The translations under genes were made by a program, and so were the position numbers. From NCBI GenBank assembly GCA_903827945.1, contig CAIKKN010000028.1, positions 1 to 34,021 of the forward strand: DNA of 34,021 nt, in the 5' to 3' direction. Source of the stretch: an uncultured Actinomycetes bacterium. GTDB taxonomy: Bacteria; Actinomycetota; Actinomycetes; Nanopelagicales; Nanopelagicaceae. The notes beneath the pieces were generated by a model, which saw nothing but the letters and a program-made list of their open reading frames with translations, ran no database searches and was not told where the DNA came from. Shown here one piece after another: positions 31,113 through 34,021 of the stretch (position 1 is its first letter; the number at the start of each line of letters is the position of its first letter).

Positions 31113-31182
31113 GGGCCTATAGCTCAGCCGGTAGAGCAACGGACTTTTAATCCCATAGGTTTCGAATCCCCGCATAGGTATT
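31113..31182 (+). pseudogene. degenerate tRNA-Lys (TTT), probable island junction
   Basis: The 5' half is a normal tRNA-Lys: acceptor strand GGGCCTA, D arm GCTC/GAGC and anticodon loop CTTTTAA. After that the structure fails: the anticodon stem ACGGA/TCCCA has two mismatches, the T arm around TTTCGAATCC is about 3 bases short, and the 3' acceptor strand reads TAGGTAT in place of TAGGCCC. CATAGGT is repeated at 31154-31160 and 31173-31179. The promoter-like region upstream is intact. AT-rich accessory DNA begins right after it, so it may be an integration junction. A divergent but functional tRNA is less likely. Confidence 0.6.
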
Positions 31183-31202
31183 ATGTCGACCAGTTCTGAC
31201 AA

Positions 31203-31248
31203 AGCCCTAATCTGAGCGTTAATCCGCCCTATTAGGGCTATTTCTTTT
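31203..31248 (+). terminator. intrinsic terminator after tRNA-Lys
   Basis: AGCCCTAAT (31203-31211) and ATTAGGGCT (31231-31239) form a perfect 9-bp stem with a 19-base loop, followed by ATTTCTTTT. It would end transcription from the tRNA-Lys promoter before the methyltransferase gene. Confidence 0.65.
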
Positions 31249-31279
31249 GCCCACTGATGTCTGCGTAACCGCGTATTCT

Positions 31280-31298
31280 TTGGCACAAGTTTGGCACA
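31280..31298 (+). repeat. paired TTGGCACA direct repeat
   Basis: TTGGCACA occurs at 31280-31287 and 31291-31298, 11 bases (one helical turn) apart, 41 bases before the methyltransferase start. Such repeats are like integrase arm-type sites or a dimeric regulator's site. It could also contribute a -35 element (TTGGCA). Confidence 0.5.
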
Positions 31299-31338
31299 GA
31301 TTTAGTGCTGATTCCTTCCTATTCGGACAGTTGGTTAG

Positions 31339-32766
31339 ATGACTAAAGAAAAAATAGACCTTGAGGTAAAAGGCTATAAAGGATTGGAAGCGTTTCATAA
31401 GTATTGGGGAAAAAAGCCCATTGAATCATGGAATATCTTGATCAATGAACTTTCTACCCCAGGGGATTTACTGCTTGACCCATTCTTGGGGTCAGGTTTG
31501 GTTGCAAGAGAATCTATTGATAAAAATAGGTCTTTTGTAGGGATTGATATAAACCCGATAAGTATAGAACTAACTAATTTTTTCTTGAATCCTCCAAAGG
31601 CAAAAGACCTAATATCTGCTTTTGAAAAAATTGAAAAGAATATGAAAAAGTATCTTACCAAGACTTACACTTGGGAAAATGAAATTGTGACTCATATTTT
31701 ATGGAACGATAAAGATGTGAGCGAATACTGGGTAAAAAGAAAAAATAAAAAAATAGTTCTCGCGCCTGACGAAGAATTTAGAAAAAAATTCAAAAAAGTA
31801 AAAAAATATACTATTAAAAATTTCAGGAAACCCGAATTTTTTAACAATGCCCGAATAAATACGAATAACAATCTGGATATTAGCGATATTTTTACAGTTC
31901 GTGCCTTGGAGTTTATTGATCTTCTTTTGCTAGAAATAGCTAAAGAAAAAAACACATCAGTAAAAAGAGCCTTAAGATTGCTTCTTTCTTCATCGGCTGG
32001 GCAGATGTCTAATATGGTTTTTGCCGTAACCAGTAGAGGTAAAACCACGGGTAAAGTGAGTACGAGAACTGAAGTTGGAAGTTGGGCAATAGGTTATTGG
32101 CGCCCTCAAACTCATTTTGAGGTGAACCCATGGTTCTGTTTTGAAAATAAAAAAAATAAGATGTTGAAAGGGTTGCTTGAAGCTGAGAAAGTCAGTTCAC
32201 TTAATGTAAATAAAGGAGTCGCAAAGCTTATGCTTGGGGATTCTGAAAAGAAATTAAAGAACATTGAAGACTCTTCTATTCAGCTAATTCTTACGGATCC
32301 ACCGCACGGTGATCGGATTCCATATTTAGAACTGAGCGAACTTTGGAATTCTATCTTGGGATTTAAAGTTGATTTTAAGAATGAATTAGTTGTGTCCAAC
32401 GCTAAGGAGAGGTCTAAGAGTGACTCAGACTACACTAAGAAATTTACCAATATAATTAATGAGTGTTACAGAGTACTGAAAGATAATGGATATCTTGCGA
32501 TTATGTTTAACTCGAAGAGTAAAGAACATTGGGATGCACTTGTCTCAATGCAGGATGGGTACAAATTAAATTTTGTAGGCAGGTACAACATGAATTACTC
32601 TGCTGGCTCAATCGTTCAAGACAATCGGGAAGGTGGATTGAAGAACGACTACGTATTAATTTTTGCTAAGGGATTGGACTCGACCAAAACTAAAAGCATA
32701 AGAAACCGACTTAAAGTTTTACCAGAATGGTCTAACAAACTTCCTGAGGCAAAACATGACTCTTAA
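31339..32766 (+). CDS. DNA methyltransferase (N6-adenine/N4-cytosine type, I-before-IV order)
   Basis: This 475-residue protein has FHKYWGKKP (residues 19-27), the SAM-binding motif I DPFLGSG (47-53) with FVGIDINP following, and far later the catalytic motif TDPPH (319-323) in place of the usual DPPY. Motif I precedes motif IV with about 265 residues between, which could hold the target-recognition region. It has no transmembrane segment. Base composition is much more AT-rich than upstream genes, with many AAA/ATA/AGA codons, indicating transfer. Its 3' end overlaps the next gene by 11 bases. Which base it methylates is not known. Confidence 0.85.
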   Translation: MTKEKIDLEVKGYKGLEAFHKYWGKKPIESWNILINELSTPGDLLLDPFLGSGLVARESIDKNRSFVGIDINPISIELTNFFLNPPKAKDLISAFEKIEKNMKKYLTKTYTWENEIVTHILWNDKDVSEYWVKRKNKKIVLAPDEEFRKKFKKVKKYTIKNFRKPEFFNNARINTNNNLDISDIFTVRALEFIDLLLLEIAKEKNTSVKRALRLLLSSSAGQMSNMVFAVTSRGKTTGKVSTRTEVGSWAIGYWRPQTHFEVNPWFCFENKKNKMLKGLLEAEKVSSLNVNKGVAKLMLGDSEKKLKNIEDSSIQLILTDPPHGDRIPYLELSELWNSILGFKVDFKNELVVSNAKERSKSDSDYTKKFTNIINECYRVLKDNGYLAIMFNSKSKEHWDALVSMQDGYKLNFVGRYNMNYSAGSIVQDNREGGLKNDYVLIFAKGLDSTKTKSIRNRLKVLPEWSNKLPEAKHDS

Positions 32767-33838
32767 TTTTGCAGACTGTGTTGCACTTTTCCGAAAAGGT
32801 GAAATTAACAAATTGTCTCTTACTCCTGAAGGATCTAGATTTTTAAAATTAAGGTCCATTGCTAGAACAGAATTGATGGAAGAGTTCTCTAAGATTTACA
32901 AAATCGTTTTGCCTGTGAAGAAAAGGGAATATTTTCCAGCAATATTTGAATCCAGAATTTCAGAAGATAACATTATTTCCTTTATTAAAATGAAATACAT
33001 TGAAGATCGTCGGGTTAGAAAAGCTGAGGAAGATGATCTGGTCTCTGAGTTATATAAAGTTGAATCATTTGGTTGGGCTGGTTCGAATGCCGGTGGGCTT
33101 GAAAGATCAATTGTTGACAATTATGTGAAAAAAATTAGAAATTATGATGGTCTAAAAAGTTCTATCAGAGGCGAGCTTATAAAGAATGTTGATACTTATG
33201 TAACTTCAAGTTGGTATAACCATTGGACATCGATAATCATTGAAGATCTTATTAATGACCACGAAAGAGTACTTCCTGCTATTGGTCGGATACCTAAGAT
33301 TGATTTCTTTGTTGATAATTATCCTTACGACCTGAAAGTAACTTTTCTTCCCGAAGAATATATTTCGGATTATAGGAAACTAAATAAACTGGGTGTCGAA
33401 AAGACAATCCTAAAAAAAGTTTGTAAAGAGTTAAATCTTCCAGTTATTGACTCGGATAAGAAAGACTTATCAGTATCTGTTTTGTGGAACCAATTGGCTG
33501 ATAACCCATCTGAATTGGCTGAAGGGGTGATATCAAAACAATTAAAGATTCGTAACGATTGCCTTACAGAAGCAATGAATGACCCCAAAAATCTTGCTAC
33601 TTGGTTATATGAAAATCAAGGCGAAAGAAGGTTTGATTCTTCTAATAGAATGTTCATCATTTTATGCGATTCCTCCAATTTCTTCGAAAGTTGGAAACTT
33701 AAACGAGCAAAACCCTTAATTGATAAACAATTCAAAAGCTATCTATCGGACAACAGGGAAATCGGGTTCGAACTAGATTTCAATTGGGAGAATCAAAAAT
33801 ACTCGGTCATAGCCGATGTAATTTTCATTATTAAATAA
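32756..33838 (+). CDS. putative restriction endonuclease or nuclease partner of the methyltransferase
   Basis: I do not recognise a family for this 360-residue protein. It contains a PD-(D/E)XK-like arrangement: E163 in IIIEDLI, D183 in KIDFF, and D192-L-K194 in YPYDLKVTF, on predicted strand-helix segments. It starts inside the methyltransferase gene's last codons and is certainly co-translated. AT-rich like its partner. The pairing suggests a type II-like restriction-modification unit, but no cleavage activity can be shown from sequence. It could also be a specificity or regulatory protein. Confidence 0.6.
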   Translation: MTLNFADCVALFRKGEINKLSLTPEGSRFLKLRSIARTELMEEFSKIYKIVLPVKKREYFPAIFESRISEDNIISFIKMKYIEDRRVRKAEEDDLVSELYKVESFGWAGSNAGGLERSIVDNYVKKIRNYDGLKSSIRGELIKNVDTYVTSSWYNHWTSIIIEDLINDHERVLPAIGRIPKIDFFVDNYPYDLKVTFLPEEYISDYRKLNKLGVEKTILKKVCKELNLPVIDSDKKDLSVSVLWNQLADNPSELAEGVISKQLKIRNDCLTEAMNDPKNLATWLYENQGERRFDSSNRMFIILCDSSNFFESWKLKRAKPLIDKQFKSYLSDNREIGFELDFNWENQKYSVIADVIFIIK

Positions 33839-33845
33839 GTCATCC

Positions 33846-33959
33846 TAAATTAAGATGTCCGTTACCACACCCGTACCTATACCCGCTTACTGGTCATAGT
33901 GCACCCGTAGCTATACCCGATGGCGGGTTATGAGTTGCTCGTGTTTTACGCTTAATTTA
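33846..33959. repeat. direct and inverted repeats after the accessory genes
   Basis: CACCCGTACCTATACCCG (33868-33885) and CACCCGTAGCTATACCCG (33902-33919) are 18-base direct repeats with one mismatch, 34 bases apart. They are enclosed by the 9-bp inverted pair TAAATTAAG (33846-33854) and CTTAATTTA (33951-33959). They may mark an element end or protein-binding array; no gene lies here. Confidence 0.55.
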
Positions 33960-33967
33960 AGTATCTC

Positions 33968-34021
33968 GGTTCCTGACCACCCAATCACAGCAAGATTAAT
34001 TGGGTGGTCAGGAACCTTCTA
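33968..34021 (+). terminator. 18-bp perfect hairpin, probable terminator at the window end
   Basis: GGTTCCTGACCACCCAAT (33968-33985) is repeated exactly inverted at 33999-34016, with a 13-base loop (33986-33998), followed by TTCTA. It is the strongest hairpin in the window and could end transcription from the methyltransferase pair. The T-run is short, and the sequence may be incomplete at the edge. Confidence 0.6.

What the first reader, a model, noticed from the sequence alone, without database searches (positions are those of the whole stretch)
31339..33838. AT-rich methyltransferase plus PD-(D/E)XK-like gene pair: candidate undescribed restriction-modification unit
A methyltransferase with motif I (DPFLGSG) before motif IV (TDPPH) overlaps by 11 bases a 360-residue gene with E163, D183, D192-x-K194 spacing as in PD-(D/E)XK nucleases. 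The pair sits behind a damaged tRNA in AT-rich DNA, a typical defence-island location. I do not recognise the second protein. The final histidine of TDPPH, in place of the usual Tyr, is less common.
Basis: partly seen in the sequence, partly recalled or inferred. Interest (0 to 1): 0.75.

Follow-up and report, generated by a model that had tools for sequence, protein, structure and literature searches.

The report
Uncatalogued Type II restriction-modification pair
Two overlapping genes, carried on foreign DNA that split a lysine-tRNA gene in an actinobacterium, most likely form a restriction-modification (anti-phage) system whose cutting enzyme belongs to a widespread family that the protein libraries searched here do not yet name.

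Summary
ORFs 31339-32766 (methyltransferase, 475 aa) and 32756-33838 (360 aa) overlap by 11 bases. The first is a DNA amino-methyltransferase (Pfam PF01555, 5.8e-22; PADLOC MTase_II, 2.7e-51). The second matches no Pfam, NCBIfam, PADLOC or PDB sequence model, yet at least 189 genome stretches from many bacterial and archaeal phyla encode relatives. E163, D183, D192, L193 and K194 are invariant in 82 of 82 aligned members, and the AlphaFold2 model (pLDDT 91) has the element order of PD-(D/E)XK nucleases. All 80 loci with enough upstream sequence have a DNA methyltransferase gene directly before it: 66 of the window's type, 13 of the D12 adenine type, 1 short PF01555 type. TDPPH is the family's majority form (49 of 68), not an oddity. 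The 'damaged tRNA' is the 5' half of tRNA-Lys(TTT); its 3' half starts contig C9, and a relative has the intact, collinear empty site, so the pair is cargo of an insertion. Cleavage, recognition site and methylated base are untested. Verdict: new member of a known kind, a Type II R-M system with an uncatalogued REase family.

The parts
31113..31153 (+). 5' half (41 nt) of tRNA-Lys(TTT), cut in the anticodon arm
   Evidence: 93-98% identical to intact tRNA-Lys in other genomes of the genus; 3' half at G000:C9:98-145; rejoined halves 74/74 identical to the G504 tRNA-Lys
31144..31153 (+). 10-bp repeated core CTTTTAATCC (attL-like), also at C9:102-111 (attR-like)
31154..34021 (.). inserted AT-rich DNA (36% GC), left end of an insertion; the contig ends inside it
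   Evidence: empty site collinear in G498:C42 (L140)
31339..32766 (+). DNA amino-methyltransferase, order HKYWGKKP (X-like) - DPFLGSG (I) - middle/TRD region - TDPPH (IV)
   Evidence: Pfam PF01555 5.8e-22; PADLOC MTase_II 2.7e-51; AF2 model pLDDT 88.6, PDB fold matches include Dam, rotifer N4C MTase, CcrM
32756..33838 (+). putative PD-(D/E)XK restriction endonuclease, 360 aa, E163/D183/D192-L-K194
   Evidence: 82/82 invariant residues; AF2 pLDDT 91.4, pTM 0.87; adjacent MTase in 80/80 testable loci
33968..34016 (.). imperfect inverted repeat at the contig end (terminator-like or element-end-like); role not established

Best explanation
The pair is a compact two-gene Type II restriction-modification system. 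The upstream SAM-dependent enzyme (motif order X-I-TRD-IV, DPPH catalytic motif) methylates a base, most likely the N6 of adenine, in a short DNA site. The downstream enzyme, from an uncatalogued PD-(D/E)XK family, cleaves the same site when it is unmodified, using D183, D192 and K194 (with E163) to bind metal and activate water. The pair arrived as cargo of DNA inserted in the anticodon arm of the tRNA-Lys(TTT) gene. Shown: gene anatomy, conserved pairing, residue invariance, predicted element order, split tRNA and empty site. Inferred: cleavage, shared recognition site, m6A, the recombinase mechanism.
For: PF01555 and PADLOC MTase_II hits. 189 genome stretches encode relatives of the second protein. 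E163, D183, D192, L193, K194 invariant in 82/82. AF2 model with the PD-(D/E)XK element order: helix 130-167 carrying E163, strands 172-174, 184-186 and 189-197 (D192, K194), helices, strand 298-304. MTase directly upstream in 80/80 testable loci: 66 window type, 13 D12, 1 short PF01555 type (D12 identity checked by Pfam for seven). MTase and REase pairwise distances correlate (r = 0.81, best of 999 permutations 0.17, 67 pairs). One REase clade (100/100) holds both window-type partners (L071, L072, L073, L079) and D12 partners, as expected if either MTase protects the site that the REase cuts. tRNA-Lys is split, with an empty site in a relative.
Against: No significant fold match for the REase in PDB or BFVD; AvaII at Z 2.8 and HinP1I at Z 2.1 are within noise. 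Active-site geometry was not measured (no coordinates available). No activity or methylome data. In the window's genome the contig ends 183 bp after the REase gene, so a further component cannot be excluded there.
Confidence: 0.88

Rival explanations
1. The second protein is a nuclease that acts on methylated or otherwise modified DNA (Type IV-like), or an accessory or control protein, and only travels with the methyltransferase.
For: No assay exists and the fold search gives no specific REase match. Distant relatives of the MTase sit beside DUF2357 and AAA ATPase genes on plasmids, which recalls modification-dependent systems.
Against: Invariant MTase-REase adjacency with correlated divergence, kept across a change of MTase class, fits classical protection better. 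The 360-aa protein has no reader or NTPase domain match.
Confidence: 0.07
2. The pair is an R-M system that is no longer active in this strain (decayed or silenced cargo).
For: It is absent from the other 295 genomes of the family searched; the host tRNA-Lys is disrupted and the insertion is cut by the contig end.
Against: Both ORFs are intact, at family length, with all presumed catalytic residues, and align with relatives over their whole length.
Confidence: 0.1
3. Chance: two unrelated ORFs with fortuitous motifs.
For: No curated family match for the second ORF.
Against: 80/80 pairing and 82/82 invariant residues.
Confidence: 0.01

Closest known systems
Type II R-M systems with PD-(D/E)XK REases (AvaII, HinP1I, ThaI as fold-level comparisons)
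   Same: Adjacent MTase and small REase; D...(D/E)xK residue set; predicted alpha-beta-beta-beta-alpha-beta element order
   Different: No sequence similarity to any PDB chain or Pfam REase family; long helical N-terminal half; conserved WYENQGxRRF and SWKLKR-type C-terminal signature; structural matches only at noise level
PF01555 N6_N4 DNA methyltransferases (fold matches include Dam, CcrM and rotifer N4CMT)
   Same: HKYWGKKP (motif X-like), DPFLGSG, DPP(H/Y)
   Different: Motif order X-I-TRD-IV, permuted relative to PF01555 (residues 20-78 match profile positions 160-218), with a large middle region and DPPH instead of DPPY in most members
D12-class (PF02086) adenine methyltransferases
   Same: Serve as MTase partner of the same REase family in 13 loci
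   Different: Not the window's MTase; a different class that replaces it in part of the REase tree

Membership tests
Type II restriction-modification system | MTase gene paired with REase gene | tested here: met
   80/80 testable loci
Type II restriction-modification system | No translocase, helicase or separate specificity subunit needed | tested here: inconclusive
   None in the window, but the contig ends 183 bp downstream; downstream ORFs in D12-paired relatives look varied by eye, not tested systematically
Type II restriction-modification system | REase cuts the site that the MTase protects | not testable with these tools
   needs an assay; only indirect support from distance correlation and partner exchange
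PD-(D/E)XK nuclease superfamily | Conserved D...(D/E)xK, with a helix Glu | tested here: met
   E163, D183, D192, K194 invariant in 82/82
PD-(D/E)XK nuclease superfamily | alpha-beta-beta-beta-alpha-beta core | tested here: inconclusive
   order of AF2 secondary-structure elements fits, pLDDT 91, but the spatial arrangement was not measured
PD-(D/E)XK nuclease superfamily | Significant structural match to a member | tested here: inconclusive
   best members AvaII Z 2.8, HinP1I Z 2.1
PF01555 amino-methyltransferase | Profile match above the gathering score | tested here: met
   79.2 bits against 26.7
N6-adenine specificity | m6A product | not testable with these tools
   inferred from DPP(H/Y) rather than SPP(Y/W), and from replacement by D12 (adenine) MTases

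The most novel reading that the evidence does not exclude
An uncatalogued family of site-specific restriction endonucleases, spread over many bacterial and archaeal phyla, whose members kept cutting the same kind of site while exchanging the protecting methyltransferase between two classes (permuted PF01555 type and D12 type).
Probability: 0.55. Interest if true: 0.5.

Novelty: new member of a known kind. Interest (0 to 1): 0.4.

Why it matters
The REase family is common (at least 189 genome stretches) and invariably paired, yet has no model in Pfam, NCBIfam or PADLOC, so tools built on these would be expected to report its MTase as an orphan. A profile from these members would turn such 'orphan' MTases into complete R-M calls. 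The exchange of MTase class within one REase clade gives a direct way to ask whether cleavage specificity is kept when the protecting enzyme is replaced.

Tried and rejected
PDB sequence search with one sequence and with a 55-member profile: nothing relevant for the REase. Foldseek PDB and BFVD and VIA-align: no significant match; the REases in the tail (AvaII, HinP1I, ThaI, BstEII) are not taken as evidence. G170 hit (E 5e-4, L004) rejected: it lies in a long ORF that reads as a DNA gyrase subunit. The REase family has no tblastn match in phages (window protein) or plasmids (three members), and one viral-contig relative. Literature searches found no description of the family; two queries were malformed. 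A Lake Biwa metaepigenome paper lists 0 methylated motifs and 0 MTases for the Actinobacteria draft genomes in the table rows seen (PMC6329791), so it gives no motif for this system. No integrase could be tied to the insertion: the two PF00589 hits are on other contigs and were not identified further.

Full report
Observation. Both ORFs exist as described: MTase 31339-32766 and a 360-aa gene 32756-33838, overlapping by 11 bases (ATGACTCTTAA). They lie in DNA of 36.0% GC, while same-size stretches of the preceding 31 kb average 47.3% (SD 1.2%, minimum 44.8%).

The methyltransferase. It matches PF01555 (79.2 bits, cut-off 26.7) and PADLOC MTase_II models (2.7e-51). The order is motif X-like HKYWGKKP, motif I DPFLGSG, a long middle region, then motif IV TDPPH; PF01555 is matched in permuted order. 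The AF2 model (pLDDT 88.6) has Dam as top Foldseek match, with the rotifer N4C MTase and CcrM further down. In 68 relatives position 323 is His in 49 and Tyr in 19, so TDPPH is the family's majority form.

The second protein. No Pfam, NCBIfam or PADLOC family and no PDB sequence matches it. Scanning 55 members gave only scattered weak hits, and a 55-member profile found nothing relevant in PDB. It is nevertheless a large family: the genome-contig scan confirmed 189 stretches, of which the best 80 were kept, from Bacteroidota, Pseudomonadota, Planctomycetota, Cyanobacteriota, Chloroflexota, candidate phyla and archaea. E163, D183, D192, L193 and K194 are invariant in 82/82 aligned members, as are W153-W157 (WYNHW), T196, Y285, E286 and R298. 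The AF2 model is confident (pLDDT 91.4, pTM 0.87): helix 130-167 carries E163, D183 sits just before strand 184-186, strand 189-197 carries D192 and K194, and helices lead on to strand 298-304. This is the element order of PD-(D/E)XK nucleases (general knowledge of that superfamily). No library structure matches significantly, and the active-site geometry could not be measured.

Pairing. In all 80 loci where at least 700 bp upstream could be read, a DNA methyltransferase gene lies directly upstream on the same strand: 66 of the window's family, 13 D12 (PF02086, confirmed by Pfam for seven) and one short PF01555 type. Two further loci were at a locus edge. Most pairs overlap or are separated by a few bases; in a few the ORFs are interrupted (L020, L036, L085). 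Across 67 pairs the MTase and REase distance matrices correlate at r = 0.81, against a best of 0.17 in 999 label permutations; shared phylogeny also contributes to this. In the REase tree one 100/100 clade of 13 holds members with window-type MTases (L071, L072, L073, L079) and, nested among them with moderate support, members with D12 MTases. The simplest reading is replacement of the MTase partner. A tree caution: the window's row has a long branch and its exact position is unresolved.

Setting. 31113-31153 is the 5' 41 nt of tRNA-Lys(TTT). The 3' half lies at G000:C9:98-145. They share the core CTTTTAATCC (window 31144-31153, C9 102-111), and the rejoined halves equal the intact G504 tRNA over 74/74 positions. 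In G498 the intact tRNA-Lys is flanked by DNA similar to the window's 28.0-28.9 kb gene on one side and to C9:220-1315 and C9:3002-5296 on the other, collinear. This is an empty site, and it implies that C28 and C9 are neighbours in the chromosome. The REase gene is absent from the other 295 genomes of the family, and the MTase from the genus except for one short partial match. That the insertion was made by a site-specific recombinase is inferred from the repeated core in the anticodon arm; no recombinase was found beside it.

Open problem. No intact tRNA-Lys(TTT) was found in this 95%-complete genome. One tRNA-Lys(CTT) exists, the other tRNAs examined carry other anticodons, and a pattern search found only the C9 half. 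A replacement copy on the unassembled part of the insertion is one possible answer, untested.

Conclusion. Confidence 0.88 for R-M; the site and the modified base are unknown. REBASE was not available, so 'uncatalogued' is limited to Pfam, NCBIfam, PADLOC and PDB sequences.

Noticed in passing
window 31113-31153 and G000:C9:98-145: The only tRNA-Lys(TTT) found in this 95%-complete genome is split by the insertion; no intact copy was found, though tRNA-Lys(CTT) exists.
   Followed up: partly
L157 672-745 and 16312-16385 (G496:C4): In another genome of the genus two intact tRNA-Lys(TTT) genes flank about 15.6 kb of metabolic and transporter genes, suggesting that tRNA-Lys is a recurrent insertion site.
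   Followed up: partly
L136 1353-1374 (G000:C9): A second short fragment of a tRNA-Lys 3' end lies 1.25 kb beyond the split tRNA, possibly a relic of another insertion.
   Followed up: no
window 31280-31300 and L136 3-12: The word TTGGCACAAG occurs just inside both ends of the insertion (window 31280-31289, with TTTGGCACAG following), possible recombinase arm sites.
   Followed up: no
L158, L159: Distant relatives of the window MTase on plasmids sit near DUF2357 genes, with an AAA ATPase gene close by, another likely modification-linked arrangement.
   Followed up: no
L002 (viral contig IMGVR_UViG_3300035698_014131): A contig classed as viral carries the complete pair (30% and 40% identical to the window's proteins) near phage-like genes such as a deoxycytidylate-deaminase-like ORF.
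   Followed up: no
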